Positions 9,036 through 54,769 of a DNA stretch of 54,769 nucleotides are shown piece by piece. The notes beneath the pieces are model-generated. The model was given only the letters and a program-made list of their open reading frames with translations. It ran no database searches and was not told the DNA's origin. The stretch is taken from positions 1 through 54,769 of IMG/VR virus record IMGVR_UViG_3300005532_000251. One strand, written 5' to 3'. Each line of letters begins with the position of its first letter. Position 1 is the first letter of the stretch. The DNA comes from a virus. A program made the translations under genes and the position numbers.

Positions 9036-9208
9036 TGCTTGTCGGCGCAGCAGCGCTCGCACTCTTGCCCAGCGCTGCATTCTTCAGCTATGGCCTGTGG
9101 CGCTATAGTGGTCGCCGTCTTCCCTGGCGCGATCTTGGCTTAGCTCTGCTCTGGGCAGCGTTCGCGGCGATATTTCTCTGGTTCGCAGTGCAGGTCCTTT
9201 TGCATTGA
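9032..9208 (+). CDS. Small two-helix membrane protein (58 aa)
   Basis: ATG 9032 overlaps the previous stop as ATGA. Two hydrophobic helices flank a basic loop (YSGRRLPWRD): residues 3-21 and 33-57. The size and topology fit many phage accessory or holin-like proteins, but it lies far from the lysis genes. The stop codon overlaps the -35 of a promoter at 9205. Confidence 0.5.
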   Translation: MMLVGAAALALLPSAAFFSYGLWRYSGRRLPWRDLGLALLWAAFAAIFLWFAVQVLLH

Positions 9209-9234
9209 CGCGTGGATGGCGCGCGCGGTATACT
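9205..9234 (+). promoter_or_regulatory. Sigma70-type promoter TTGACG-18-TATACT
   Basis: TTGACG (9205-9210) and TATACT (9229-9234) are 18 bp apart. The -10 lies in an imperfect palindrome (GCGCG..TACGCGC), similar to one at 21086-21107, suggesting a shared operator. Transcription would start near 9241, only about 25 bp before a strong terminator, so a short untranslated RNA is expected. Confidence 0.6.
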
Positions 9235-9265
9235 ACGCGCATCCATATCATTTCTCCGTTCTATC

Positions 9266-9316
9266 GCCGAAGCCGCTGCGTCTGCCGGGGGGAGCGCAGC
9301 GGCTTCGGCGTTTTTT
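9266..9316 (+). terminator. Rho-independent terminator, perfect 15-bp stem
   Basis: GCCGAAGCCGCTGCG (9266-9280) pairs perfectly with 9295-9309 across a 14-base loop, followed by GTTTTTT. It closes the left operon and the short transcript from 9205. Confidence 0.92.
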
Positions 9317-9439: not shown

Positions 9440-10804
9440 ATGGAACGGGCACAGTTATCAGCAGCACGGCACAAAAAGCACTGGTCTCTCGACGAGGCAG
9501 CCGCAGAGATCGGCATTGACCGCTCAACGCTCCTGCGTTGGGAGAAAGGGAGGACATCACCTCAGCCGATGCATATTCGCAAGCTCTGCGAGGTCTATGG
9601 GAAATCTGCGCATGAATTGGACCTGGAGGACGAACCCCCTCCGGTGCATCATATCCAGGGCGATATCGGAGACAATGAGGTCATCGCCGAATTCTCGCGC
9701 CAAGATCTTACCATGCGTCTCCTACAGATTGCCTGGAATTGGTCTGCACGCACTGCCCGATATCAAGACCTCCAGCGACTGATCGTCCTGGAGGTGGAGG
9801 GTAGCGATATGTCTGATGACCTCATCAGCCGGCGCGATGCACTGCGACGCCTGGCGCTGTTCCCCGTCGAGTTTTGTAGTCTTTCGGCGCTTATCCCTGT
9901 ACTCTCACGTCCCACCGAGGAGATCCTGACCTCCTGCGCAGCAGGCATTACTGCCTGCTGGGAATTGCGCAAGGGTCACGATCTCGCCTTTGCAGGCGAA
10001 GTCATTGAGAGATATCTGCCTACCTTGCAAGCTCTCTCTCAGCAAGGATCAAGCCACAACAGAACCGAGGCGGCGCATTTGCTCACCCAGGCGCTGCTCC
10101 TCAAGTCTATCCTGGCCCGGCATCTTGCTGGCTCGGCGCAGGCACTGCATTACGCAAAGCAAGCAGCCATGATCGCGCATCAGGCACATGACTCAGTATT
10201 GGAGATCGTCGTTGCCAGGAATGTCGCAACGGTCTACGATTCAATGCAGGATGTGCGGCCCTGGCGCGATGCGGCAGAGCGCACCGTGATGCTTGTCACA
10301 AACGCCTCGCACGTCCCTCCGGCCATTGCCAGCACCGCATATATCGGCCTGGCGAATGCCCTGTCCTATACGGGAGAGAAGCAAGATGCGCTCTCAGCGC
10401 TCAAAAAAGCAAAGGCGCTCTTTTTTGCCCAGGACCCCGGCGCGACACTTCCGATCTTCGCTGACTATGGCTGGGCAAATGTCCTTCTCAATGAAGGACA
10501 TGTCTACTACCATCTCGGCGATCCTGCGCCTTCCATTGCCGCCCTCGATCAATTACAGGAAGAGCGTGCCGCCAACGCCACCTGGAAAGCACAAGCCTAT
10601 ACCGAGCAGACCCTGGCCGAACTGATGCATCCTTCGCGTGATATGGAGTATGCCATTGATCGCTGGATAAAAGGAGCGCAGATCGCGCGCCAACTTTCCA
10701 GTCAGCAGCGTCGCCGTGAGAGTCTTTCGGCGCTCGTTGCTATGCAGTCTGCCTGGCCGGGTGAACGACGCATAGCTGAGCTTCGCGAGCACATCGTGCG
10801 CTGA
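9440..10804 (+). CDS. XRE-family regulator with TPR-like C-terminal region (454 aa)
   Basis: ATG 9440 is chosen for its GGAGGG site. Residues 5-60 form an XRE/Cro helix-turn-helix (WSLDEAAAEIGIDRSTLLRWEKGRTSPQP). The remaining ~390 residues are helical, with paired-helix repeats (QALHYAKQAAMIAHQA, KQDALSALKKAKALFF, APSIAALDQLQEERA) typical of TPR sensor domains. Proteins of this length and plan are numerous in Ktedonobacteria. It has its own promoter and is closed by a palindromic terminator, so it is an autonomous regulatory unit and a candidate lysogeny repressor or quorum-type regulator; the ligand is unknown. Confidence 0.85.
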   Translation: MERAQLSAARHKKHWSLDEAAAEIGIDRSTLLRWEKGRTSPQPMHIRKLCEVYGKSAHELDLEDEPPPVHHIQGDIGDNEVIAEFSRQDLTMRLLQIAWNWSARTARYQDLQRLIVLEVEGSDMSDDLISRRDALRRLALFPVEFCSLSALIPVLSRPTEEILTSCAAGITACWELRKGHDLAFAGEVIERYLPTLQALSQQGSSHNRTEAAHLLTQALLLKSILARHLAGSAQALHYAKQAAMIAHQAHDSVLEIVVARNVATVYDSMQDVRPWRDAAERTVMLVTNASHVPPAIASTAYIGLANALSYTGEKQDALSALKKAKALFFAQDPGATLPIFADYGWANVLLNEGHVYYHLGDPAPSIAALDQLQEERAANATWKAQAYTEQTLAELMHPSRDMEYAIDRWIKGAQIARQLSSQQRRRESLSALVAMQSAWPGERRIAELREHIVR

Positions 10805-12593: not shown

Positions 12594-12630
12594 ACTCCCC
12601 TGCTTCCAAAGAGAAGCAGGGGAGTTTTAT
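12594..12630 (+). terminator. Terminator with perfect 13-bp stem
   Basis: ACTCCCCTGCTTC (12594-12606) pairs with 12613-12625, followed by TTTAT. A second 9-bp hairpin ATCTCATGG/CCATGAGAT follows directly (12629-12656). Confidence 0.9.
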
Positions 12631-12689
12631 CTCATGGTTCAGAAACACCATGAGATTTGATGAAAATCTCAGAAATAGAGCGAAACCCC

Positions 12690-12718
12690 TTGACAAACCA
12701 CAAACCATCGTGTATCAT
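12690..12718 (+). promoter_or_regulatory. Consensus promoter TTGACA-17-TATCAT
   Basis: TTGACA (12690-12695) and TATCAT (12713-12718) are 17 bp apart. The predicted start near 12725 lies immediately before the terminator-like hairpin at 12732. Confidence 0.75.
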
Positions 12719-12731
12719 TAGTGTAATTAAC

Positions 12732-12766
12732 GAGGCATAGATCCCGGAGGACTATGCCTTTTTTTG
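12732..12766 (+). terminator. Leader terminator/attenuator directly after a promoter
   Basis: AGGCATAG (12733-12740) pairs with CTATGCCT (12752-12759), followed by a run of T. The transcript from 12690 would be about 40 nt unless read through into the gene at 12815. The loop contains GGAGG, so attenuation by ribosome or protein binding is possible; a tiny RNA is the alternative. Confidence 0.75.
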
Positions 12767-12814
12767 TTTTTAGCTGAGTTTTTCTACGACCTCACTGTGA
12801 AAGGCGGGGCCTCC

Positions 12815-16091: not shown

Positions 16092-17165
16092 ATGACAGTC
16101 TATGGCGTCACCGTCGGCTCAAAAGGGCCGCAACTCAACCCGCAAGTCATCACAGCGATGCGGGATCTTGGTCTTACCTCGCTGCGCTTTAATCTGTCGG
16201 CCACAGTGCTGACCGATGGCCGTGGCAGCTATAACTGGGCTGTCGCTGATAACTTTGTGCAGCAGTGTAACGAAGCCGGCATCGAAGCCTACTATGTGCT
16301 CAAGGATTTGCCGGCGGCCTGGCTTGACAGTCAAGGATTACCGACGCCTGCCGGGATGCTCGCGTATGCTTCGGCGGTAGCGAGCCGCTATAACGGCAAG
16401 ACTGGACATGGCAAGATCGGCGTCCTTGAGGTCGGCAATGAGGCGTACAGCCTCAGCTCGACGTTTTACGGCGCGCAGCTCGCCGCTGCGATGAACGCAG
16501 TGTACCAGCCTATCAAGAATATCAATGCTGATCTCCTGGTTGTCCCTGGCGCGCTCTTGCAGCGCAATACGCAGACCATTGAGAATGGCACGGCGACGCT
16601 TTTACAGCAGGCTGCGCACAGCATGGATGCGCTGAATTGCCATACCTACTTCGGTATCCCTGGAAACGGCCATATCGATCCCTCAGATGGCAGTCTCCCA
16701 AATATTCCCAGCTTCCCACAGTACATCGAAGCGATGCAGGGTGTGCTGGCCCAGCACACCATAAGCCTGCCGATCTGGGTGACAGAGTTTGGCTGGGCCA
16801 CCACGGCGAACTTTGGCCGCGCATTGCGCACCGTCGTCACTCCTGAACTGCAATGGCAATATGAGAAGTATTGCTACGACCAGGCGGCAAAGCTCGGAGT
16901 TCAACGCATGTACGTCTTTACCCTCGGCTTTGCGAACCCGCCTGACGGCACATCGCTGGTCCAGGCAGGCGGCGCGAAGACGGTGGCCTACAACGGTCTC
17001 AAGGCATACATTGCCGGCCAGCCGAGTAGCGACCCACCGCCGAATAATGGGAACGACGGCGGCAATGGTGGGAACAGTGGAGGCGGATCAGGGCCAACGA
17101 GCGCGCAGATCGCGCAGGCGGTATCGCTGCTCGATGAGGCGAAGCAGTTGCTGAGTGGTTCCTAG
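16092..17165 (+). CDS. Clan GH-A type glycoside hydrolase (357 aa)
   Basis: The chain folds as a probable (beta/alpha)8 barrel. VLEVGNEAY gives the Asn116-Glu117 acid/base pair at the end of strand 4, and LPIWVTEFGW gives nucleophile Glu232 at strand 7, the hallmark of retaining clan-A enzymes (GH5/GH39-like families). LRFNL and HTYFG segments fit strands 2 and 6. A Gly/Asn-rich linker (about 313-336) leads to a short helix that may dock to another protein. There is no signal peptide, so it is either virion-borne, degrading host capsule or cell-wall glycans, or released at lysis. Family is uncertain; enzyme class is likely. Confidence 0.75.
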   Translation: MTVYGVTVGSKGPQLNPQVITAMRDLGLTSLRFNLSATVLTDGRGSYNWAVADNFVQQCNEAGIEAYYVLKDLPAAWLDSQGLPTPAGMLAYASAVASRYNGKTGHGKIGVLEVGNEAYSLSSTFYGAQLAAAMNAVYQPIKNINADLLVVPGALLQRNTQTIENGTATLLQQAAHSMDALNCHTYFGIPGNGHIDPSDGSLPNIPSFPQYIEAMQGVLAQHTISLPIWVTEFGWATTANFGRALRTVVTPELQWQYEKYCYDQAAKLGVQRMYVFTLGFANPPDGTSLVQAGGAKTVAYNGLKAYIAGQPSSDPPPNNGNDGGNGGNSGGGSGPTSAQIAQAVSLLDEAKQLLSGS

Positions 17166-18121
17166 ATCCCGAACATTTCTTCGAGTTTGTCGCCGTAGGG
17201 GTTCTCAGCGCTGTGGAGCTGCTTCATATACATGGAGGTGGTTTTGAGGTCATTGTGACCGAGGCGTTCACCGATTTCAGAGAGTGAGGCGCCGGCCTTC
17301 TCCATATTGATCGCAAACGAGTGGCGCAGAACATGACCGCGCGGATCGTCCAGATACCTGTCGCAGATATCGGAGATGGACTGTGATGAGAGCGGCCCGC
17401 CATAGTTGTTGTGCGAAAGCGAAATCCAAATCGGCGAATCATTCTCGATGGAAAGCAAGGCTTCACCATAGACGGCGTGAAGGTATTCCATGAGTGCAGT
17501 TGCAGTCTTCGGCTTCAAGACATCGTGCATCACTTTGCCGCCCTTACAGCGGGGCCATGTAACCAGGATGCGCCGCGCTGAAATTGAGAGATGTCCATAG
17601 CGCATCGCCGCCAGCTCTCCGATGCGTCGCCCGGTCGTAAATCCAACGGAAAGCAGCGCGAAGTCACGCATGCCAGCAAGAGTTCGGCGATCAATCAAGG
17701 CAAGTCGCGCTGCAATCTCCTGGCTTGTCATGGGGAGGGCCGCATGCACGCTCACGCGTGGGCGACGCTCTGCAAGGTCAATAGGGTTCACGGCGACGAT
17801 CCTCCCGGTTCTGGCATAGCGATAGAAGCTACTGAGTATCGCCAGGCGCTGATTATGCGTTGCTGGCGCAATAGCGCGGCCATCGCGGCCTATCGATGCC
17901 CATGTCTCAGCAAATCGCGCTACCAGTGTAGCATCACTGTCGAGATCGCGTCCAGCTCGTTGCAACGCGGCGCGAAACTCTCGAATGGTCCATTCATAGG
18001 CTGTCTTCGTCTTCTCACTGCCAGAACGTCGCGTTTTCGTGGCAAGCCAGGTGGTAATGCACTCTTCAAGCGCACGAAGCCGGTCTGGAACAGCCTGGAG
18101 CATCCCGGAATACTCATCCAT
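17162..18121 (-). CDS. int: Tyrosine recombinase / phage integrase (319 aa)
   Basis: The C-terminal catalytic domain shows R166 (TTGRRIGELAAMR), K193/K196 (RCKGGKVMH), H263-x-x-R266 (HVLRHSF), H289 (LGHNDLKTT) and nucleophile Y298 (SMYMK). The N-terminal SAM-like core-binding domain spans about 15-120. It integrates or resolves circular DNA at att sites. The gene is convergent with the glycosidase, overlapping it by 4 bp, and reads leftward from its own promoter. No attP could be proved nearby; a tRNA-like sequence lies 6 kb away. AGGTG precedes the ATG. Confidence 0.92.
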   Translation of the reverse strand: MDEYSGMLQAVPDRLRALEECITTWLATKTRRSGSEKTKTAYEWTIREFRAALQRAGRDLDSDATLVARFAETWASIGRDGRAIAPATHNQRLAILSSFYRYARTGRIVAVNPIDLAERRPRVSVHAALPMTSQEIAARLALIDRRTLAGMRDFALLSVGFTTGRRIGELAAMRYGHLSISARRILVTWPRCKGGKVMHDVLKPKTATALMEYLHAVYGEALLSIENDSPIWISLSHNNYGGPLSSQSISDICDRYLDDPRGHVLRHSFAINMEKAGASLSEIGERLGHNDLKTTSMYMKQLHSAENPYGDKLEEMFGI

Positions 18122-19908: not shown

Positions 19909-19977
19909 TCGCCGACTCCCTTGTAATCTTTGTGGTTATATTATCACATCCTTTTTAACAGCACCGGAGGACGCCGC

Positions 19978-21021
19978 ATGCCAGGCCCGCTCATCGTCCC
20001 CGTCACCACTATTTCAAAGATCAGGCCGCACAGTAACGCCGATTCCCTCGAAATCGCTGAGGTCTTGGGATGGCAGTGTGTCGTGCAGAAGGATCGCTAT
20101 AACGTCGGCGACAAAGTGGTCTATTTCCCTCCTGATACGATGCTCCCCAAAGACAAGAGCGACTCCTGGGGTATCACGCAGTATCTCGATAAGCAGCGTA
20201 TCAAAGCGACGCGACTGCGCGGCGAACCATCGTTCGGCCTGGTCATGCCGTGCGAGGATGAATCATGGCAGATCGGTGAGAACGTCGCCGAGTATTACGG
20301 CGCGACGAAGTGGGAGCCACCGACACGCGAGGCCGCCTGGGCGAAGGCGATGCGAGGGCAGGGAAAGTTCGTCGCCAACCCTGATGCACTCCCTGGTAAT
20401 CCGCTCTTCCCTGAGTACACGCACATTCAGAACCTGCGCCACTTCCCTGATCTCTTCGGCGCCGACGAGCTGGTCGTCGTCACTGAGAAGCTGCACGGCA
20501 CCAATTCGCGGATCGGCATCATCAACGGCGAATGGATGGCAGGATCGCACCGGGTGCGCCGTGGCGAAGGTGACGCGCTCTACTGGTCGCCACGAAAACA
20601 GCGAGGTGTCGAGGCGCTGCTTACAGCGCTAGCTTCGTATCACCGCCAGGTCGTGCTCTACGGCGAAATTCTGGGCAGTGATGTGCAGAGCTTAGATTAC
20701 GGCTATGCGGGCCACGCTGGCTACAGAGCATTCGATCTCATGATCGATGGCCGCTATGTCGAGTTCGATGTCTTCCGCATGCTCTGTGTGCGCTACGATG
20801 TTGCGATGGTGCCGATGCTCTCCTATGGCTATCCCTTCAACCTCGATGAGATCCGCATGGAGGCCAGCGGCAAAACGGCACTCGGCTCGAATCATCTTCG
20901 CGAAGGCGTCGTGGTGAAGCCGCTCATTGAGCGCACGGATCCACGCATTGGGCGCGCCATTGCCAAGTACGTCAGCGATGATTTTCTGCTCGCGAAGCAC
21001 AGCGATTTTGCGGAGGTGTGA
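19978..21021 (+). CDS. RNA ligase, DRB0094 (Rnl5-like) family (347 aa)
   Basis: CGGAGG precedes ATG 19978. The N-terminal ~105 residues fit an OB-fold domain (TISKIRPHSNADSLEIAEVLGWQCVVQK, GDKVVYFPPDT, RLRGEPSFGLVMP). The nucleotidyltransferase domain follows: motif I VTEKLHGTNSRIG with adenylated Lys171, motif III-like LYGEILG, motif IV REGVVVKPL and motif V AIAKYVSDDF. This N-OB plus ligase order is that of Deinococcus DRB0094. Such ligases seal nicked RNA with a 3'-OH/5'-P. In a phage this suggests repair of tRNA or other RNA cut by host defence nucleases. Confidence 0.88.
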   Translation: MPGPLIVPVTTISKIRPHSNADSLEIAEVLGWQCVVQKDRYNVGDKVVYFPPDTMLPKDKSDSWGITQYLDKQRIKATRLRGEPSFGLVMPCEDESWQIGENVAEYYGATKWEPPTREAAWAKAMRGQGKFVANPDALPGNPLFPEYTHIQNLRHFPDLFGADELVVVTEKLHGTNSRIGIINGEWMAGSHRVRRGEGDALYWSPRKQRGVEALLTALASYHRQVVLYGEILGSDVQSLDYGYAGHAGYRAFDLMIDGRYVEFDVFRMLCVRYDVAMVPMLSYGYPFNLDEIRMEASGKTALGSNHLREGVVVKPLIERTDPRIGRAIAKYVSDDFLLAKHSDFAEV

Positions 21022-37566: not shown

Positions 37567-37597
37567 AAAAATGCCCCGGCTTGTATTGCCGGGGCAT
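37567..37597 (-). terminator. Terminator of the antisense cassette
   Basis: Leftward, ATGCCCCGGC pairs perfectly with GCCGGGGCAT (37571-37580 with 37588-37597), followed by TTTTTGTGTG. It closes the three-gene antisense operon. Confidence 0.88.
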
Positions 37598-37608
37598 GGA
37601 TGGCGGAG

Positions 37609-37953
37609 CTATGCGCCGAGGCGGATGATTTTTTCCATATGCTTCATCTCACCACCGCCAGGGCGATTTGTGAGATGAGCATAGCCGCCATAGAAGTCAA
37701 TGAACTGCCTCTCAAGCCTATAGATCATCGATGGATCTCGTTGCGCATCGTCATGAATTGGAATAATAGTCACGATAGGCTCGCCGCCTTGCGCCCAGAT
37801 ATTACGGATGACCCTGTACCGCTCCTGCTGGCTGTGATTGCCCCTGGCGGCATAAAGATGAGAACGGATGCGACCAAGATATCCACAGCCAGAACCTTTG
37901 CCAACATAGAACACGTTGCCATTAGGATCTGCAATGGTGTAAACATAGCTCAT
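37609..37953 (-). CDS. GIY-YIG family nuclease (114 aa)
   Basis: AAGGAGATC precedes the leftward ATG at 37953. The GIY-YIG module is complete in outline: YVY (3-5), FYVGKG (15-20), Arg at 28 or 30 (LGRIRSH), Glu81 (LERQFID) and a later Asn96 (LTNRPGG). There is no extra DNA-binding domain except a short basic tail. The single-domain form occurs in homing endonucleases and in small mobile-element nucleases. It overlaps the preceding cassette gene by 4 bp, so it is coexpressed with the Cas8c-like protein. Confidence 0.85.
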   Translation of the reverse strand: MSYVYTIADPNGNVFYVGKGSGCGYLGRIRSHLYAARGNHSQQERYRVIRNIWAQGGEPIVTIIPIHDDAQRDPSMIYRLERQFIDFYGGYAHLTNRPGGGEMKHMEKIIRLGA

Positions 37954-38372
37954 GATGAGATCTCCTTTGCCCGCTCTCTGCGCAGTAATTCGCGGACAAA
38001 TTTTGATCCTCCTCGCTTGAGTACCCACTCTTTGAGCGATGGCTCAAGGCGTATAAGCAGTTGAGCAGTAAATTGTGTCTCTTCTAGCATCGCCACCTTT
38101 GAAAGAGACTTCGCTTTTTCCTGATAGTAGCCCAGTGGAAAATCCGCCTGGTCGGATGGTGACAAGGGCTGCCCATCAAAGGCATCCATCGGCAGCGTAT
38201 TCATCACGTCGATGATGGTATCAGCTTTCCCCATCTCGGCGAGGCGAGGCAAGGCAGGAACAATGATCTGCGTTGGACTCATGCTGGCAACCTGGTAATC
38301 CTGCGTATGCACTGCACCCTCGCGTTCGAGCTGAGCAAAAAGCTTGCCCAGCAAGTATCCTTTACTTGGCAT
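37950..38372 (-). CDS. Cas8c/Csd1 C-terminal (Cas11c)-like protein with RHH tail (140 aa)
   Basis: GGGAGGCGG precedes the leftward ATG at 38372. Residues 5-87 (YLLGKLFAQLEREG, ASMSPTQIIVPALPRLAEMGK, PLSPSDQADFPLGYYQEKA) follow the conserved pattern at the end of type I-C Cas8c/Csd1, which ends in Leu-(S/T)-x-x-x-Q-x-x-F-x-(L/I)-GYY and is also made separately as the Cas11c small subunit. Residues 101-133 (FTAQLLIRLEPSLKEWVLKR, GGSKFVRELLRRE) look like a ribbon-helix-helix DNA-binding module. No other cas gene or CRISPR array is in the window. The match is from recalled family patterns; function could be a decoy of Cascade, or a distinct DNA-binding role. Confidence 0.6.
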   Translation of the reverse strand: MPSKGYLLGKLFAQLEREGAVHTQDYQVASMSPTQIIVPALPRLAEMGKADTIIDVMNTLPMDAFDGQPLSPSDQADFPLGYYQEKAKSLSKVAMLEETQFTAQLLIRLEPSLKEWVLKRGGSKFVRELLRRERAKEISS

Positions 38373-38775
38373 ACGCCGCCTCCCATTCCTCTGCGAAGAT
38401 TCTGATACCCTCGCTACGATGATCGATCCAGAAACGAGCATCGCTACGACGGTTGATGATCGCCATGAATGTAGTCCTCGCCCGCACTGCCTCCTCCGGG
38501 CTTCCTTGTGCCTGCGCAAAGCGGCGCTCGAACTCATTCACAAATTCCTGGCGAATGGTCGCGGCCCAGGCGATTTGCTTCTCTGAGCCAATCAACGCGG
38601 CCAGCCCCAACTCTGCTGCCTGTGCGCTGGCTCGTGCCACCTGCTCACTGCGTTTGCATGCAGAACAAGGCTCTCTTTGTAGCCAGGTGATCTTACGCTC
38701 TCGCTCAGCCTCTTTGCCATAAAGTTCAACCTGCTCACTATGGCTGCAACTGTGAATTACCATGTATTTTGCCAT
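38362..38775 (-). CDS. Zinc-binding accessory protein heading the antisense cassette (137 aa)
   Basis: AAGGAGATG precedes the leftward ATG at 38775. An N-terminal C-x-H pair (HSCSHSEQVELYG, Cys10/His12) and CSAC (Cys37/Cys40) make a likely zinc site. A recognisable block LGLAALIGSEKQIAWAATIR (56-75) and a helical C-terminus follow. Proteins of this plan (Cys-His start, GSEKQ-x-AWA block) are recalled as common in phages and plasmids, with unknown function. It overlaps the Cas8c-like gene by 11 bp. Transcription is from the consensus promoter at 38818. Confidence 0.7.
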   Translation of the reverse strand: MAKYMVIHSCSHSEQVELYGKEAERERKITWLQREPCSACKRSEQVARASAQAAELGLAALIGSEKQIAWAATIRQEFVNEFERRFAQAQGSPEEAVRARTTFMAIINRRSDARFWIDHRSEGIRIFAEEWEAAYAK

Positions 38776-38817
38776 TGCCTTACATCTCCTTGTTTGTAGT
38801 AACGTTTGTATATACAT

Positions 38818-38846
38818 ATTGTATATCAATGGCGCTTACTTGTCAA
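38818..38846 (-). promoter_or_regulatory. Consensus leftward promoter TTGACA-17-TACAAT
   Basis: TTGACA (38841-38846) and TACAAT (38818-38823) read leftward with 17 bp between them, about 40 bp before the first cassette ATG. It lies antisense to the tape-measure leader. Confidence 0.88.
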
Positions 38847-48221: not shown

Positions 48222-48232
48222 GTACACAAAGA

Positions 48233-48269
48233 ACAGCCCTGGATCTCATCGAGATCCAGGGCTGTTTTG
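48233..48269. terminator. Bidirectional terminator, perfect 15-bp stem
   Basis: ACAGCCCTGGATCTC (48233-48247) pairs with 48251-48265 around ATC, followed by TTTGTGT on the + side and by TTCTTTGTGT leftward. It separates convergent operons. Confidence 0.9.
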
Positions 48270-48277
48270 TGTATCCG

Positions 48278-48739
48278 TTACTTCCACTCGTAGCGCCGCC
48301 TGGTCCTGCGCTGGCTTTCTTTGATCTTGCGTAGATCAAGGATCTGCTCAGAGATTTCAGCGAGCGCGAGGCTCCCGGTTGCGAATTCTCGATCTGCGTG
48401 GCCTCGCAGCCATGCTATCGGCTCGCATTGGAGCTTGAGTCCCATGTGACCGATGAAGGCGCGGTTTCCCTCGAACTCGCCAATGATCTCGTTGGTGCCA
48501 ACGATAATCTTTGCGGATTTGCCGGCAAATTCCGCGAGCGACATGCCGAGAGTTCCGAGGCGCACGCGAGGATTATCGGCGAGCAGATAGTAGTAGCGCC
48601 GGATGCCTTCGTGCTTTGGGGGATGCATGGGCTTGTGCGTCTTTCTCAGATAGTCGTCGATGACGCGCTGGTCAGGCTCGCCTGCGTCCTCGAAGGCGGC
48701 GACAAATGCCACGTCAATCGTGGTAATTTTCCAGATCAT
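48278..48739 (-). CDS. Hypothetical protein (153 aa)
   Basis: GGCGGAGAA precedes the leftward ATG. A mixed alpha/beta protein with a central RRYYYLLADNPRVRLGTLGM and a strongly basic C-terminal helix (LDLRKIKESQRRTRRRYEW). It is the last gene of a repressible antisense operon; it ends 8 bp before the bidirectional terminator. Unrecognised. Confidence 0.6.
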   Translation of the reverse strand: MIWKITTIDVAFVAAFEDAGEPDQRVIDDYLRKTHKPMHPPKHEGIRRYYYLLADNPRVRLGTLGMSLAEFAGKSAKIIVGTNEIIGEFEGNRAFIGHMGLKLQCEPIAWLRGHADREFATGSLALAEISEQILDLRKIKESQRRTRRRYEWK

Positions 48740-48741
48740 GC

Positions 48742-48987
48742 TTAGTTCTCCGCCTTTTCCCAGTACTCCAGCATCTCATCATCGAGCGCATGGTCCTCTT
48801 GCCAGCGCTTATTGAGTCGCAGGCACTTGCCATAGGCACTTTGCCGGTTGAGGTAGGTTTTACGCGGTCTTAGTTCTTCCCAGGTGTTGCTGTGATTGTC
48901 AACCATTTCAACGACCTCATAGACATCGCCGCCTACTCCGATATTCTTGACGCGGTAGGGGCCAAATACCTTTTGCTTTGCTGGCAT
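48742..48987 (-). CDS. Hypothetical protein (81 aa)
   Basis: AAGGAGAAAAGCT precedes the leftward ATG. Beta-rich N-terminus (GPYRVKNIGVGGDVYEVVEMVDN) and charged helical C-terminus. First gene after a strong promoter with twin operators. Unrecognised. Confidence 0.6.
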   Translation of the reverse strand: MPAKQKVFGPYRVKNIGVGGDVYEVVEMVDNHSNTWEELRPRKTYLNRQSAYGKCLRLNKRWQEDHALDDEMLEYWEKAEN

Positions 48988-49024
48988 AGCTTTTCTCCTT
49001 AATCAATATCAATGCCATCTTACT

Positions 49025-49103
49025 GACATCACTTTGATGTCTTCCACAGCTAAAGAATACCATGACATCACTTTGATGTCAATCCCTTACACCACGAATT
49101 TCC
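49025..49103 (-). promoter_or_regulatory. Repressible promoter with twin 17-bp operators
   Basis: Leftward TTGACA (49077-49082) and TATTCT (49054-49059) are 17 bp apart. GACATCA-CTT-TGATGTC occurs at 49064-49080, between -35 and -10, and identically at 49025-49041, past the start. A dimeric repressor bound to both would block or loop the promoter. The 27 bp from the -35 upstream (49077-49103) match those of the promoter at 50954 at 23 positions. Confidence 0.85.
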
Positions 49104-49116
49104 TGAATAAGCAAAG

Positions 49117-49186
49117 AACCGCCCCGGATCGCATCGAGACCGGGGCGGTTGTGTGTCTTCAACCCATTCCATTTTGTAATGGGTTG
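49117..49186 (-). terminator. Tandem hairpins ending the upstream antisense operon
   Basis: Leftward from the stop at 49191 come a 9-bp hairpin (CAACCCATT/AATGGGTTG, 49160-49186) and an 11-bp GC-rich hairpin (AACCGCCCCGG/CCGGGGCGGTT, 49117-49150) followed by CTTTGCTTATT. Confidence 0.75.
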
Positions 49187-49190
49187 AATT

Positions 49191-49559
49191 TCAGCGCCGC
49201 AAGGACCTGACGACATCTCTGATCCGGCGCAGTTCCGCCTCGACTTCTTTGCGCTGCCTCCCTGCGTACTCAGAGAGATCAATACCTTCGAGCGCAGACA
49301 GCGCCAGATCGCAGGCGGTACGCTGTGCCGCACGGATCTCAGCCTGGATCTCACGAGCACGCCTGGCACGCTTCTCATTCTTCGCGCGCAATGCTTCCTC
49401 AGAAAGCTGCGCCTGGCGCAGCCGATCATTGACCAGCTTCGCGCCGGCAGGATCGAGGGCGCGGCATTCCTTGCACCAGGGCATGATAAAGCCGGATCGG
49501 CCCTGAAAGAGCACAAGGAATTTCTCCTCGCCACAGCGCTCACATTTCTTTGTTTTCAT
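49191..49559 (-). CDS. Zinc-ribbon plus coiled-coil protein (122 aa)
   Basis: ATG at 49559 is preferred over TTG 49565, which overlaps the previous stop. Residues 6-32 contain CERCGEEKF and WCKEC, a four-cysteine zinc ribbon like those in HNH-associated or RecX-neighbouring small proteins. The rest is a charged coiled coil (SEEALRAKNEKRARRAREIQAEI, RQRKEVEAELRRIRDVVR). No HNH catalytic residues are seen. A nucleic-acid-binding role is likely. Confidence 0.65.
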   Translation of the reverse strand: MKTKKCERCGEEKFLVLFQGRSGFIMPWCKECRALDPAGAKLVNDRLRQAQLSEEALRAKNEKRARRAREIQAEIRAAQRTACDLALSALEGIDLSEYAGRQRKEVEAELRRIRDVVRSLRR

Positions 49560-49561
49560 AT

Positions 49562-49789
49562 TCAATATCCTGCATCGTAGAGCCAGGCTTTCAGAATCTC
49601 ATTCACTGCTTCATCGACGCCCTGAAAACCTCGCTCTTCTATGCATTCGTTGAGCCGGCGTAAGGTCAGCGGCTGGACCTTGCAGCAAAGTTCCGCGCTC
49701 AAAGGATCAGCCTCATGCGCGGCGAGGATTGAGGCGGCCAGGAGATATTCTTTGAGGCCGGGATCTTCATTGAGAGATTCGTCATTCAT
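49562..49789 (-). CDS. Hypothetical acidic protein (75 aa)
   Basis: Leftward gene with helices (GLKEYLLAASILAAHEADPLS, LRRLNECIEERGFQGVDEAVNEILKAWL). It overlaps the start region of the zinc-ribbon gene and lies 7 bp after the next upstream gene, inside one operon. Unrecognised. Confidence 0.6.
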   Translation of the reverse strand: MNDESLNEDPGLKEYLLAASILAAHEADPLSAELCCKVQPLTLRRLNECIEERGFQGVDEAVNEILKAWLYDAGY

Positions 49790-49796
49790 TATGGCC

Positions 49797-50045
49797 TCAC
49801 AAGATCATCGCTTTTTGATCTTCTGATCGTCTTCCATAGACCTGCTTGATCGCAAAGAGTACCGCATCTTGAAGCTCCGCGCGTGTTGGGAAAGGTACGC
49901 CCTGCTGCATGAAGAAATCATACAGCAGGTCTACATCCGGCTTTTTGATGCGGATGACGACACTCTCATGCTCTCCTGGCTTCTCGGCATTTTTATTGCC
50001 AGGGGGCGCGCCTGGCTTGCGATCAGAGGAAATGCTACGAGCCAC
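49797..50045 (-). CDS. Hypothetical DNA-binding-like protein (82 aa)
   Basis: The start is GTG at 50045 after AGGAG. The N-terminus KPGAPPGNKNAEKPG is a basic, Gly/Asn-rich arm of the kind seen before small phage DNA-binding domains. Then comes a strand-helix-helix pattern (ESVVIRIKKPDVDLLYDFFMQQG, FPTRAELQDAVLFAIKQVYG), compatible with ribbon-helix-helix. It could be the repressor of the twin-operator promoter. It overlaps the preceding gene by 11 bp. Confidence 0.6.
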   Translation of the reverse strand: MARSISSDRKPGAPPGNKNAEKPGEHESVVIRIKKPDVDLLYDFFMQQGVPFPTRAELQDAVLFAIKQVYGRRSEDQKAMIL

Positions 50046-50244
50046 GCTTCAACTCCTGTTCTACGACAGCATGGATAGCCGCATTCATCTCCGGGGGCAA
50101 TTCGTCACCGATCACCCCCGCTTCGCGTGCGAGGCGCACACCGGCCCCCGTCGCCATCCATTTGATATCTTCCTCATCCATCCCCTCTTCGCGCGCCAGG
50201 GCAATTTCGCCCTGGATGGCCTTGACCAACTCTGGATTAAGCAT
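50035..50244 (-). CDS. Hypothetical protein (69 aa)
   Basis: AAGGAGGG precedes the leftward ATG. All-helical acidic protein (PELVKAIQGEIALAREEGMDEEDIKWM, NAAIHAVVEQELKRG). Unrecognised; part of the antisense operon from 50959. Confidence 0.6.
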   Translation of the reverse strand: MLNPELVKAIQGEIALAREEGMDEEDIKWMATGAGVRLAREAGVIGDELPPEMNAAIHAVVEQELKRGS

Positions 50245-50258
50245 TGATTCCCTCCTTT

Positions 50259-50882
50259 TTACCGTCGGATATACTGATCTCCCTGCTCATCACAGAGAAA
50301 TAATGATGCCGGGGACATGCGATTAGAAAGCGTGGCGCGAAGCAGTCGCCGTGCGCTGTCCAGGAGGAATGCATAATCTTCGCATTCCTCGTCATGGGGA
50401 TGGGCTGCATGCAACGCCTGCGCAAGTTGCTCGGCGGTAAAGATCGTCCCGGCAGGCATGGCCCGGACGGTTTCCGTCATTGTCTGGTCAGCGTCTACAC
50501 CGCGCTGATTGCGATAAAAAACGCTCATCACTTCGATGTGGGCGCTCTGCTGCGCATGTGCCTCTTCAACGACTGATTCTGCCTGCTGCTCGCTCGTTTC
50601 TGTCTGAGGGGCTGGTGGCTCCGGCGCAGGCCGGGCGACGATCACAATACGCTGACCAGCATCGGGACCGCGCATCTTTTCGTAGCGAGCCAGTTCAGCT
50701 TCGGCTTTGGCCTGATCCGTGGTCTCATAGCCGTTCCACCAGCATTGGCGATCTTGGTACCAGTACTGCACTGAAAAGAAGGTATCGGGCGTATCAGGCC
50801 CGAAGAAACTCAGATCACCAGCCTGATAGGCATTGGGCGCGCGGTTATTCAATTCGTTGAGGGCGATAACTTCGTAGGTCAT
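50259..50882 (-). CDS. Hypothetical protein heading the antisense operon (207 aa)
   Basis: AAGGAGAACAAC precedes the leftward ATG at 50882; an upstream in-frame start would lie inside the promoter. The N-terminal domain (about 1-85: MTYEVIALNELNNRAPNAYQ, FFSVQYWYQDRQCWWNGYET) is aromatic-rich. A Pro/Gln/Glu linker (about 88-115) and a helical C-terminal domain with a His-Pro-His (HPHDEECEDYAFLLDSARRLL) follow. Function unknown. Confidence 0.65.
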   Translation of the reverse strand: MTYEVIALNELNNRAPNAYQAGDLSFFGPDTPDTFFSVQYWYQDRQCWWNGYETTDQAKAEAELARYEKMRGPDAGQRIVIVARPAPEPPAPQTETSEQQAESVVEEAHAQQSAHIEVMSVFYRNQRGVDADQTMTETVRAMPAGTIFTAEQLAQALHAAHPHDEECEDYAFLLDSARRLLRATLSNRMSPASLFLCDEQGDQYIRR

Positions 50883-50930
50883 TGTTGTTCTCCTTACTTT
50901 TCTCTGTCCCGATTTCTCAGGTACAATTGA

Positions 50931-50980
50931 ATTGTAACACAACAATTCGATGCTGTCAACCCCTTGTGCCACGAATTTCC
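50931..50980 (-). promoter_or_regulatory. Consensus leftward promoter with conserved upstream block
   Basis: TTGACA (50954-50959) and TACAAT (50931-50936) are 17 bp apart. An inverted repeat GAATTGT/ACAATTC (50929-50948) overlaps the -10 as a candidate operator. The block GGAAATTCGTGG..AAGGG immediately before the -35 is shared with the promoter at 49077. Confidence 0.88.
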
Positions 50981-51119
50981 CCGCCTCCGCAAAAACTCAT
51001 TGATCCTCATGGATATCACCATAATGCCCTGATTTTGCCCTGATTTGTGCGAAATTCGTAGAACTTTTGTGCAGATCATTCGTTATACAAAGCAGAGCAG
51101 CAAGGAGACGACGAATCCC

Positions 51120-52088
51120 ATGCAATTCATCGCATCGCCGAACTACTGGGCAGGCCGGGCGGGGTATCGCCCGCGTTGGCTCATTGTGCATGGTACTGCC
51201 GGCGGCAGCTCCGCCGCAGGTATCGCCGCCTGGTTCGCGAATCCAGAGAGCCAGGTCAGCGCTCACTACGTTGTGGACCAGGCCGGCACGGTGATCTGCT
51301 GCGTCGAGGAGCAGGACACCGCCTGGTCCAACGGTATCATCACCGGGGCGCCGGCGACCTTGCCGTTCCGCACTGCCAGCGATGGCATCCACCGGGACGC
51401 CTGGTGGAGCGATGCCGTGAACCCCAACTATCTCACGATCTCCATTGAGCACGTCAAGCCCAGCACGGATAACAGCGATGCTTTGACGCAGGCGCAGCAG
51501 GCGGCGAGCTTTGCGCTTATCAAAGCGATCTGCGAGCGCTGGGGCATTCCAAAGCGATTCGCAGATAGCAATGGGGGCATCACCGGCCACTTTAGCATCG
51601 ATCCTCTGAACAGATCGCACTGCCCAGGGCCGTATCCGTGGTCGGCATTGTGGGCTTATTTACAACGAGGGGGAAGTATGGTTCCGCAAGGATGGAGCGA
51701 TGACGGCACGACACTCACTGCTCCCAATGGCGTCAAAGTCATCAAGGGATTCCGCGATGTTGTGCTCTTCAGCGCCTGGGATCCGCAAAATTATCCGCTG
51801 GAGGCGGAGCGCGGCGCCGATCCTTTGGAGGTCGGTAATCCATCGCTTGGCGCCGGGACACGTCAGACCTTCCGCTGGAGTCGCTTAGAATGGACGCCCT
51901 CACGCGGCGTCTTTCAGTGCTGGCTTGGTCAGGAGGCGCTGGCATTGGAAGCGAAGCTAGCGCAGCTCCAGCCGGCGCCAATCACCGCTGCGCAGGCGAG
52001 CATCGTCATCGCCGATCTTAAAGACATTGTAGAGAGTGCCGAGGGTGCCTTGCAGCAGCTCGGCGCCGGCACATCGTCATCATCGTAG
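51120..52088 (+). CDS. Endolysin: N-acetylmuramoyl-L-alanine amidase (322 aa)
   Basis: AAGGAG precedes ATG 51120. The Amidase_2/PGRP domain (about 8-180) has its zinc ligands in LIVHGTAG (His24), GHFSIDP (His157) and SHCPGPYPW (Cys168), with SAHYVVDQAG (47-56) and ISIEHV as further family blocks. It cuts the bond between muramic acid and the stem peptide. Residues about 187-290 (GWSDDGTTLTAPNGVKVIKGFRD) form a probable cell-wall-binding part, ending in a helix. A holin gene lies just downstream. No signal peptide, so holin-dependent release is expected. Confidence 0.9.
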   Translation: MQFIASPNYWAGRAGYRPRWLIVHGTAGGSSAAGIAAWFANPESQVSAHYVVDQAGTVICCVEEQDTAWSNGIITGAPATLPFRTASDGIHRDAWWSDAVNPNYLTISIEHVKPSTDNSDALTQAQQAASFALIKAICERWGIPKRFADSNGGITGHFSIDPLNRSHCPGPYPWSALWAYLQRGGSMVPQGWSDDGTTLTAPNGVKVIKGFRDVVLFSAWDPQNYPLEAERGADPLEVGNPSLGAGTRQTFRWSRLEWTPSRGVFQCWLGQEALALEAKLAQLQPAPITAAQASIVIADLKDIVESAEGALQQLGAGTSSSS

Positions 52089-52495: not shown

Positions 52496-52960
52496 ATGAC
52501 GGTTCCACAGCCCTTCACATTGCTCCTGCCAGCACTGGCCTCAATGATCGCCGGGTGGCTCAAGGATGATAATTTGCCTGCCTGGGCTAACTTCGCGATC
52601 ATCGTTGCGCTCTTCGTCGTCTCAGTGGCTGCGTGCATCCTCGTCGGCGGCGGCCTCAGTGGCAACCCTGGCGCCGACATCAGCCTGATTATCGCCGAGT
52701 GCGCCGCCGTCTTTGGCTTGCTGAAGCCGGTGATGGACAGAGCAGCGGCGACAGTGCCCTCGCCGATAGCAGCGCTCGCCGAGAGCCGCGCAGAGGCAGA
52801 GGCGGTCTTCGCGGCGCCGATCACGCCGGTAGCCGTGCGCGCCAGTGCTGCACCGATCAAAGAGCAAAGCCCGGTGAGGCCGCAGATCACGTTGCCGGCA
52901 AAGCCGCCACCGCCAGAGTCTCCACCACCAGCGCCAGGCGGGGACGGCTCGGCCTCGTAG
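52496..52960 (+). CDS. Putative holin (154 aa)
   Basis: ATG 52496 is four bases after the previous stop. Two clear membrane helices (about 8-22 and 30-52: ANFAIIVALFVVSVAACILVGG) and a third weaker segment (about 60-80) fit class I or II holins. A long Pro/Ala-rich charged tail (about 85-154) extends into the cytoplasm. Position after the amidase is the main support. Confidence 0.65.
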   Translation: MTVPQPFTLLLPALASMIAGWLKDDNLPAWANFAIIVALFVVSVAACILVGGGLSGNPGADISLIIAECAAVFGLLKPVMDRAAATVPSPIAALAESRAEAEAVFAAPITPVAVRASAAPIKEQSPVRPQITLPAKPPPPESPPPAPGGDGSAS

Positions 52961-52984
52961 CCTCTGCCTCGCCTTACGCGCTGC

Positions 52985-53080
52985 TTGACATGGCGAGGCG
53001 ACGACTGCTATGATGGCGGTGTTTCCGAGACGGGAAGCGCGGGCCTCGACGATGCAACACGTCGAGGCCCGCGCTGCATT
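52985..53080 (+). ncRNA. Predicted small RNA unit A (promoter plus hairpin)
   Basis: TTGACA (52985-52990), 18 bp, TATGAT (53009-53014), then a perfect 15-bp stem GCGCGGGCCTCGACG (53037-53051 with 53060-53074) followed by TGCATTTTGG. The transcript would be about 60 nt and shows no credible ORF or ribosome site. Confidence 0.65.
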
Positions 53081-53088
53081 TTGGCACA

Positions 53089-53190
53089 TTGACAGCAGTG
53101 CTAGCATTGATATCGATACCTCTACCATCTGGCGCAGGCGATCACGGCCATTCTACCGCCAAATTATCATGGCCGTGATCGTTGTCCTCT
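53089..53190 (+). ncRNA. Predicted small RNA unit B
   Basis: TTGACA (53089-53094) lies 16 bp from TATCGA in an extended TGA-TAT context (53111-53116), a weak -10. It is followed by a 13-bp perfect stem CGATCACGGCCAT (53139-53151 with 53169-53181) and TTGTCCTCT. The promoter is less certain than in the neighbouring units. Confidence 0.45.
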
Positions 53191-53194
53191 AAGA

Positions 53195-53313
53195 TTGACA
53201 GCGCGGCCCACATCGCGTATTCTGTGAGCACGGGAAAAGTCAGGTATTTCAGTTGAGTACAGACACGATATGGCGCCTATCGACCAGCCCTCGATAGGCG
53301 CCATATCGTGTCT
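53195..53313 (+). ncRNA. Predicted small RNA unit C with a 23-bp perfect hairpin
   Basis: TTGACA (53195-53200), 17 bp, TATTCT (53218-53223). Then arms 53261-53283 and 53291-53313 pair perfectly over 23 bp around CCAGCCC. No T-run follows, so the RNA may continue into unit D or be processed. The end of the right arm is the first base of the next -35. Confidence 0.6.
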
Positions 53314-53433
53314 TGACGGAGCCTCTCTCGCATGCTACGATAGGGCTGCGATCCCATCGCGACTGCAATGTCATGCCAGGCGGCACCCAACACACAAAGA
53401 GGCCCTTGAAGCGCGGATTGCTTCAAGGGCCTC
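53313..53433 (+). ncRNA. Predicted small RNA unit D
   Basis: TTGACG (53313-53318), 17 bp, TACGAT (53336-53341), followed 58 bp later by the 14-bp perfect hairpin at 53399-53433. Rightward the hairpin has no T-run; it may serve mainly as the terminator of the antisense operon, which weakens this unit. Confidence 0.45.
53399..53433 (-). terminator. Terminator of the right-hand antisense operon
   Basis: GAGGCCCTTGAAGC (53399-53412) pairs perfectly with 53420-53433, and leftward it is followed by TTTGTGTG. It lies 16 bp after the antisense stop at 53449. Confidence 0.82.
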
Positions 53434-53448
53434 GATGATTCTCAACGC

Positions 53449-53709
53449 TCACACGATGATCGGCTCATCGCCCGCAAGGCGGGATTGATATGATGGCAGA
53501 TGCCACGTATCCGCCTTCGCTTTCGCCGAATACGCAACGCTTTTGACAACGCGCACGCCGTAGCCAGCGCTGACCAGGACATGGAGCTGGACGACGCCGC
53601 GCTCTTTGTCCTCAATGCCAGAGATGATGGCGGCGTACTCACGGCCTACCATGTCCACGTAGATCACGGTGCGGCCAAGCGCGGCGCCGGGGATCATCGT
53701 TGTTGTCAT
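53449..53709 (-). CDS. Hypothetical protein (86 aa)
   Basis: Last gene of an antisense operon, overlapped at its start by the upstream gene (ATGA). Beta-rich (VIYVDMVGREYAAIISGIEDKERG, QLHVLVSAGYGVRVVKSVAYS), possibly an SH3-like barrel. Unrecognised. Confidence 0.6.
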   Translation of the reverse strand: MTTTMIPGAALGRTVIYVDMVGREYAAIISGIEDKERGVVQLHVLVSAGYGVRVVKSVAYSAKAKADTWHLPSYQSRLAGDEPIIV

Positions 53710-54056
53710 AGCGCACGCATCCTCTCTGTTTCCCTCGTTTCAACGAGGGCCGCCCGCGCGGCAGCGAGGGCCTGGGCGATCTTCGGATCGGCGGCGATCT
53801 CGTCGCAACTAAGCGACTGCACGGCATTCATGAGCGTCATCGCCTGCATGGATTCTGTGTTGTGCCGGCTGTCTTGCAGCGCGCGCACGAGGACGAGGAT
53901 ATGCTGTGGCATCGGCGCCTCGCTCCGAGGCCGTGCATGGAAATACTCCATGATAGCCATGAAGAGAGCGCGCAGGGCCTCGCTTGTCGCTGGAGGCGTC
54001 TGCTCTCGTGTGTTGCGCAGCGCGGCCAGGCGCGGCGGTGTGGTCGTCATGGTCAT
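53706..54056 (-). CDS. Hypothetical helical protein (116 aa)
   Basis: ATGA overlaps on both sides. Mainly helical (LRALFMAIMEYFHARPRSEAPMPQHILVLVRALQ, IAQALAAARAALVETRETERM). No motif seen. Confidence 0.6.
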   Translation of the reverse strand: MTMTTTPPRLAALRNTREQTPPATSEALRALFMAIMEYFHARPRSEAPMPQHILVLVRALQDSRHNTESMQAMTLMNAVQSLSCDEIAADPKIAQALAAARAALVETRETERMRAL

Positions 54057-54478
54057 CGCAGCGCCTCCTGGTTCACAATGAGTTCGCCAGTTGTCCGGGC
54101 CAGCGCGCGATCTGTGGCGCGATCAACAAGTGCTGCGTCGCATTGATCGATCATGAGATTATGCGTACAGCGCGGCACGAGCACCGCGCCGAGTTCTTCG
54201 GCGAGACCAACGCTCACCTCGAAGAGACCGCAGGCTACGATGTCATCGGCATCCCCACAGCGCATGATGATAGTCACCGTTTCGCCATCGTTGGCGGTAA
54301 GGTCAAGCTCCGAGTCCCCGGTGACCAACTCATGGCAAACCGGACCATCAATGTTGCGCTCGTGGATCACCGTGATGATGGTGTTCTCATCACTGAGAGA
54401 ACTGTGCAGATGCACAGAGGCGCTGTAGCTCGTCTGCTCCGTATAGAGCACACTGAGCCAGGCTAATTTCGTCGTCAT
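54053..54478 (-). CDS. Hypothetical beta-rich protein (141 aa)
   Basis: AAGGGGGTATCC precedes the leftward ATG. Beta strands dominate (AWLSVLYTEQTSYSASVHLHSS, NTIITVIHERN, ETVTIIMRCGDADDI) with an acidic helical end (AALVDRATDRALARTTGELIV). Unrecognised. Confidence 0.6.
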   Translation of the reverse strand: MTTKLAWLSVLYTEQTSYSASVHLHSSLSDENTIITVIHERNIDGPVCHELVTGDSELDLTANDGETVTIIMRCGDADDIVACGLFEVSVGLAEELGAVLVPRCTHNLMIDQCDAALVDRATDRALARTTGELIVNQEALR

Positions 54479-54499
54479 TGGATACCCCCTTGATTGAAT

Positions 54500-54527
54500 G
54501 CAGCGCGCGCGTAATTCGGCGCGCTGC
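54500..54527 (-). other. GC-rich hairpin between antisense genes
   Basis: GCAGCGCGC pairs perfectly with GCGCGCTGC around a ten-base loop. No T-run follows, so it is at most a weak terminator or an operator. Confidence 0.5.
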
Positions 54528-54538
54528 GACTACAAAGA

Positions 54539-54769
54539 TTACATGTCGTTTTTTTCAGCAGATGGAGCAGCGCGCAATGGAAGCAGGCACTGCGTATTCA
54601 TCACCGATTGCGCCCAGATCCACAATGCTTCACCACGCTCGCCACGGAAAACCATCGCTTCTCGCAATCCGACACAGAGGACCTCGACGCGATCCTTGCA
54701 GTGGTAGATCGCAAGAATATTGTTGACGTAAAGGATAACGTTGCCAATTTGAATAAATGGTTTGTTCAT
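54539..54769 (-). CDS. Hypothetical protein at the window edge (76 aa)
   Basis: The leftward ATG is the last three bases of the window, so its ribosome site and promoter, or a longer N-terminus, lie outside. The N-terminal half is hydrophobic beta (FIQIGNVILYVNNILAIYHC), then mixed (EVLCVGLREAMVFRGERGEALWIWAQ), as in small SH3-like accessory proteins. Unrecognised. Confidence 0.5.
   Translation of the reverse strand: MNKPFIQIGNVILYVNNILAIYHCKDRVEVLCVGLREAMVFRGERGEALWIWAQSVMNTQCLLPLRAAPSAEKNDM

What the first reader, a model, noticed from the sequence alone, without database searches (positions are those of the whole stretch)
52985..53433. Array of promoter-plus-hairpin units: candidate phage small RNAs
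A gene-free stretch of about 490 bp holds up to four repeats of one design: a sigma70-like promoter (TTGACA/G, 16-18 bp, TATGAT, TATCGA, TATTCT, TACGAT) followed by a perfect 13-23 bp hairpin. Stems differ in sequence, so this is not simple duplication. Unit C's hairpin ends exactly in the next -35. Structured short RNAs could act as antisense regulators, sponges, or decoys for host nucleases or defence sensors. Units A and C are the best supported.
Basis: partly seen in the sequence, partly recalled or inferred. Interest (0 to 1): 0.75.

Follow-up and report, generated by a model that had tools for sequence, protein, structure and literature searches.

The report
Prophage small-RNA genes beside lysis genes
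In the gap between two converging gene sets of a temperate phage of unknown host lie at least two likely RNA-only genes, each a strong promoter followed by a long perfect hairpin; this looks like a new, unstudied example of the small RNAs that dormant phages are known to carry, and what these ones do is not yet known.

Summary
The 488-bp gap 52961-53448 has four perfect hairpins (16, 13, 23 and 14 bp). A third-order random model gave no 488-bp segment with four, and no other part of the window has even two. Three sigma70-like sites all point right. Promoters A (52985) and C (53195) are well supported. Only six exact TTGACA boxes in the whole 54.8 kb have a good -10 at the right distance, and all six are intergenic. 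Three of the other four start leftward gene operons and one starts a 44-nt terminator-hairpin RNA. One correction changes the picture: hairpin D is most likely the terminator of the leftward operon 54769-53449, with the same TTTGTGT-type tail as other leftward terminators. Promoter B has a poor -10, and hairpins B and C have no convincing U-tract. Best reading: two, perhaps three, independently promoted short structured RNAs ('RNA morons') of a temperate phage, enclosed between operon ends. This resembles the short sRNAs at the moron site of lambdoid prophages. No relative carries the region, so stem covariation, transcription and targets are untested. I class it as a new member of a known kind, with function inferred only.

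The parts
52961..53448 (.). Convergent, gene-free gap between the rightward lysis genes and the leftward small-gene operon
   Evidence: ORF ends at 52960 (+) and 53449 (-); negative coding score in all six frames
52985..53014 (+). Promoter A: TTGACA-18-TATGAT, TG before the -10
   Evidence: 11/12 match; one of only six exact-TTGACA promoters in the window, all intergenic
53021..53083 (+). Predicted RNA A, about 63 nt: 15-nt leader, 16-bp hairpin 53036-53075, tail GCATTTT
   Evidence: RNA fold z -6.9; tail U-score 3.15, at the 99th percentile of the window. It may also end the rightward lysis operon
53089..53116 (+). Weak promoter B: TTGACA-16-TATCGA
   Evidence: -35 exact, -10 only 3/6; not found by the scan
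53139..53181 (+). Hairpin B: 13-bp perfect stem, 17-nt loop
   Evidence: fold z -4.1
53195..53223 (+). Promoter C: TTGACA-17-TATTCT
   Evidence: 10/12; same hexamers as the leftward promoter at 49082
53230..53316 (+). Predicted RNA C, about 87 nt or longer: 31-nt leader and 23-bp perfect hairpin 53261-53313; no U-tract, so the 3' end is unknown
   Evidence: fold z -8.5; tail U-score 0.91
53313..53341 (+). Candidate promoter D: TTGACG-17-TACGAT, TG before the -10
   Evidence: 9/12; would drive RNA through hairpin D and antisense to the leftward genes
53399..53433 (-). Hairpin D: terminator of the leftward operon, tail TTTGTGTGTT on the minus strand
   Evidence: minus-strand U-score 3.28 against 1.60 on plus; TTTGTGT-type tail shared with leftward terminators at 37571 and 48226
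51090..52088 (+). Endolysin (Amidase_2), first gene of the rightward lysis genes
   Evidence: Pfam PF01510 E 1.1e-22; listed ORF starts at 51045; the start codon is uncertain
52496..52960 (+). Holin-like membrane protein, last gene before the array
   Evidence: hydrophobic N-terminal half read from the translation; no family hit
53449..54769 (-). Leftward operon of four small unknown genes ending at hairpin D
   Evidence: ORFs and start contexts, coding scores

Best explanation
The gap holds a small cassette of non-coding 'moron' genes of a temperate phage. Promoters A and C (and perhaps B) are host sigma70 promoters, so they would be active in the lysogen like the phage's leftward moron operons. 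A makes a RNA of about 63 nt that ends at its own hairpin. C makes a leader followed by a 23-bp perfect hairpin whose 3' end is set by RNase III, Rho or read-through. Hairpin D is the terminator of the converging leftward operon, and hairpin A also stops the rightward lysis operon, so the cassette sits insulated between two operon ends. Most likely the single-stranded leaders and loops pair with host or phage RNA, with the hairpins giving stability. Promoter and hairpin anatomy is shown by sequence; transcription in the lysogen, the 3' ends and base-pairing action are inferred.
For: Hairpins and promoters far beyond chance. All six exact-TTGACA promoters in the window are intergenic; 179 permuted hexamers give a mean of 0.12 and at most 2, and none but TTGACA gives two in the array. 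Three of the six precede SD+ATG starts of leftward operons and one precedes a 44-nt RNA ending in a T7 terminator. RNA fold z -6.9 and -8.5 for A and C. No coding signal over the gap as a whole. The tyrosine integrase at 17162-18121 supports a temperate life style. Precedent: Tree et al. 2014 (PMC4104026) found 51-60-nt convergent sRNAs at the moron site of lambdoid prophages.
Against: C and B lack U-tracts, so a defined short transcript is not assured. No RNA data. No relative carries the region, so no conservation or covariation. The nearest relative found (G002, terminase 51% identical) has no hairpin with a stem of 9 bp or more in its convergent gap at about 17.8-18.1 kb, but its lysis region is not homologous. 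No Rfam family matches.
Confidence: 0.55

Rival explanations
1. The gap is simply a terminator/insulator zone between two converging operons. A ends the rightward lysis operon, D ends the leftward operon, B and C are extra or decayed terminators, and the promoter-like sites are incidental.
For: A has a T4 tail on + and D a T-rich tail on -, each facing its own operon. The phage's other operon ends carry similar hairpins at 37571, 48226 and 49112.
Against: Two sites of the phage's rare exact-TTGACA promoter class lie here. B and C have no convincing T-tract on either strand, and terminators do not need 23-bp stems or promoters between them.
Confidence: 0.22
2. Promoters C and D drive rightward RNA that crosses hairpin D and runs antisense to the leftward genes 53449-54478, repressing them; the hairpins are processing or pausing sites.
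For: Promoters C and D point into the leftward genes, and the scan shows no + strand terminator between D and the end of the window. Hairpin D is a weak terminator on +. A prophage antisense RNA with a role is known: STnc6030 of BTP1 (PMC7067206).
Against: Does not explain unit A, which has its own T-tailed hairpin, nor the 23-bp stem in C.
Confidence: 0.12
3. The inverted repeats work or arise as DNA: protein-binding or recombination sites, or perfect palindromes made by template switching, with no RNA role.
For: Perfect stems without detectable sequence relation between units fit template-switch repair; the DNA strands also fold stably.
Against: Each hairpin lies 20-60 bp downstream of a same-strand promoter-like site. 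The integrase, near which an att site is usual, is 35 kb away. Loops of 7-17 nt are unlike operators or parS.
Confidence: 0.07
4. Unit C is an eroded or leader-peptide copy of the start of gene 52153: CAGGTATTTCA...CAGACAC is shared and would start a 14-codon ORF from TTG 53253 (MSTDTIWRLSTSPR).
For: Local alignment of the two leaders: score 16.1, 0 of 1000 shuffles of the C leader reach it against that stretch.
Against: Against the whole window, shuffles reach 18.0, so the match was picked post hoc. The mini-ORF has a negative codon score.
Confidence: 0.04

Closest known systems
Short convergent anti-sRNAs of lambdoid prophages (EcOnc01/AgvB, EcOnc02/AsxR, EcOnc03; Tree et al. 2014, PMC4104026)
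   Same: Short RNA genes in the moron site of a temperate phage, in an intergenic gap beside late genes; 51-60 nt there, about 63 nt predicted for A
   Different: No sequence relation known; there the 3' part is conserved and the 5' part variable, here the units share nothing detectable; Hfq binding and targets untested; here units A and C are tandem on one strand
Prophage Pas sRNAs of pathogenic E. coli (PMC13192938)
   Same: Intergenic prophage sRNA genes
   Different: Multiple Pas copies lie far apart, not in tandem; different host and sequence
RNA anti-CRISPRs (Racr / solitary repeat units, PMC10651486)
   Same: A phage promoter followed directly by a short structured non-coding RNA
   Different: Racrs mimic CRISPR repeats; the 13-23-bp stems here are longer than is usual for repeats (own knowledge), and no Rfam family matched
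Type III toxin-antitoxin RNA (ToxI)
   Same: A promoter and structured RNA units in a row
   Different: ToxI units are near-identical repeats before a terminator and toxin gene (own knowledge); here the units are unrelated and no toxin gene was identified nearby

Membership tests
Phage moron (independently transcribed extra gene) | Own sigma70-type promoter | tested here: met
   A and C met; B not met
Phage moron (independently transcribed extra gene) | Own terminator | tested here: inconclusive
   A has a hairpin plus T4 (U-score 3.15); C and B lack a convincing U-tract
Phage moron (independently transcribed extra gene) | Absent from related phages at the same place | tested here: inconclusive
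   The nearest relative G002 lacks it, but its lysis region is not homologous
Phage moron (independently transcribed extra gene) | Expressed in the lysogen | not testable with these tools
   needs RNA-seq of a lysogen; the host is unknown
Lambdoid prophage anti-sRNA (AgvB/AsxR group) | Conserved 3' region shared among members | tested here: not met
   no significant similarity among units A-D; no match in the phage collection
Racr (RNA anti-CRISPR) | Similarity to a CRISPR repeat | tested here: inconclusive
   no Rfam match, but the library may not cover this host's repeats and the host is unknown
Type III toxin-antitoxin | Tandem near-identical RNA repeats beside a ToxN-like gene | tested here: not met
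   units not alike; neighbouring genes have no ToxN match
Intrinsic terminator (hairpin D, minus strand) | GC-rich stem followed by a T-rich tail at the end of an operon | tested here: met

The most novel reading that the evidence does not exclude
A tandem cassette of RNA-only accessory genes, each a separate promoter plus a long perfect hairpin of different sequence, maintained by a temperate phage as a swappable set of RNA tools, for example dsRNA-like decoys or sponges against host nucleases, sRNAs or defence sensors.
Probability: 0.12. Interest if true: 0.7.

Novelty: new member of a known kind. Interest (0 to 1): 0.38.

Why it matters
Prophage small RNAs are studied mostly in enterobacteria. 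This locus suggests that a phage far from those models, with no close relative in the collections searched, also carries RNA-only accessory genes, several side by side. It also shows a way to find them from DNA alone: look for the phage's rare moron-type promoters that are followed by a hairpin instead of a gene.

Tried and rejected
Close relatives for covariation: one viral-contig scan each for the 53449- protein, endolysin, holin-like protein and 54053- protein, plus an exact search for the core of stem C, found nothing. The only near-identical record (G001) covers the window up to about 28.6 kb and does not contain the region. BLASTN of the gap in phages and plasmids: nothing. Distant relative G002: no array and no homologous lysis region. 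Rfam: no gathering-level hit; the miRNA matches below cut-off only reflect a perfect stem. tRNA or tmRNA: none. Coding: the 60-aa ORF 53010-53192 scores 0.11 bits per codon and starts inside promoter A's -10 with no good SD; judged not a gene. Diverged duplication of units: no pair beats shuffles clearly. Exact antisense matches to the rest of the phage: none longer than 13 nt. Type III toxin-antitoxin, Racr and parS readings: see the membership test and rivals.

Full report
What is there. The window is a virus record of 54,769 bases, 57.6% G+C, with a terminase, portal, tape measure, endolysin and tyrosine integrase, so it is a tailed and most likely temperate phage. No host could be named. 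The finding lies in the 488-bp gap 52961-53448 between rightward lysis genes (amidase endolysin, a small gene, a holin-like membrane protein ending at 52960) and four small leftward genes, the last ending at 53449. The gap scores as non-coding in all six frames, while its neighbours score as coding.

Is it more than chance? Yes. Four perfect inverted repeats (16, 13, 23 and 14 bp) lie at the stated places. In 4000 simulated 488-bp segments from a third-order model only 0.1% had even one such hairpin, and no part of the window away from this gap has two in one segment. Three or more promoter-like sites on the + strand occurred in 0.025% of simulations. The whole stretch folds as RNA at z = -10.4.

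Are the promoters real? The strongest argument is internal. An exact TTGACA with an acceptable -10 at 16-18 bp occurs only six times on both strands of the window, and all six are fully intergenic although about 91% of the window is coding. The 179 other orderings of the same letters give on average 0.12 intergenic sites and never more than two (the gene list was my own, drawn from ORFs). Three of the six drive leftward operons that start with good SD and ATG (38846, 49082, 50959). One (12690) drives a 44-nt RNA ending in a hairpin and T7. The remaining two are A and C. B has a perfect -35 but no -10. D is a 9/12 site.

Hairpin D should be reassigned. On the minus strand it is followed by TTTGTGTGTT. 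The leftward operons at 38846-37571 and 49082-48226 end in hairpins with the same TTTGTGT tail, and the one at 50959-49112 ends in a variant (TTCTTTGC). D therefore most likely ends the leftward operon 54769-53449. Hairpin A, with a T4 tail (U-score at the 99th percentile of the window), may serve both its own RNA and the end of the lysis operon. B and C have no convincing U-tract on either strand.

What it most likely does. I read A and C as two RNA-only moron genes that use the phage's moron-type promoter, and B as a possible third. RNA A would be about 63 nt; RNA C would carry a 31-nt leader and a 23-bp perfect hairpin, a natural RNase III substrate (established knowledge). The phage has another unit of the same plan at 9205-9316: promoter, 16-bp hairpin, T6. 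Shown: anatomy, statistics, gene context. Inferred: transcription in the lysogen, ends, targets.

Conservation. Scans for the flanking proteins and for stem C, and BLAST of the gap, found nothing. The one near-identical record stops before the region. The best distant relative, G002 (39.4 kb), shares terminase, portal, capsid and tail genes but has a different lysis region, and its convergent gap at about 17.8-18.1 kb has no hairpin. Perfect stems could also arise by template switching without selection.

Known kinds. Closest are the 51-60-nt convergent sRNAs at the moron site of lambdoid prophages, two of which antagonise host sRNAs (PMC4104026). A well-mapped prophage transcriptome (BTP1) held nine candidate ncRNAs, most uncharacterised (PMC7067206). 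The present units share position and design with these but no sequence. I file the locus as a new member of a known kind and not as a member of any named sRNA family.

Slips of mine that did not affect the result: an early holin query used a wrong frame and an early script read a missing file; both were redone.

Noticed in passing
window 12690-12768: A textbook small-RNA-like unit: TTGACA-17-TATCAT, then about 17 nt to a hairpin (GGCATAG...CTATGCC) and T7; predicted RNA about 44 nt with GGAGG in the loop. Two more hairpins (12594-12625, 12629-12656) lie just upstream. Better supported as a discrete RNA than the reported array.
   Followed up: partly
window 9205-9316: TTGACG-18-TATACT promoter followed by a perfect 16-bp hairpin and T6, upstream of a second promoter (9345) and an XRE-HTH/TPR regulator gene (9441-10804); a short RNA or an operon terminator.
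   Followed up: partly
window 49022-49082: Two copies of TGACATCACTTTGATGTC, one overlapping the -35 of the leftward promoter at 49082: likely operators of a phage or host repressor.
   Followed up: no
window 37571-38846, 48226-49082, 49112-50959: Three leftward moron-like operons inside the rightward late region, each with an exact TTGACA promoter and its own hairpin terminator.
   Followed up: partly
window 19930-21021: A predicted RNA ligase (phrog_968, E 4.8e-47) in a phage with no tRNA genes in the window.
   Followed up: no
L182 1750-1900 (G002 about 21.75-21.9 kb): In the distant relative, a hairpin with a 17-bp perfect core (95% over 22 bp) lies between two promoter-like sites that face each other into it.
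   Followed up: no
L006 1-2097 (record G001): The near-identical record begins 2.75 kb upstream of the window with a leftward transposase-like ORF and an ArsR-like regulator (read by eye), so the window is cut at a gene boundary on the left.
   Followed up: no
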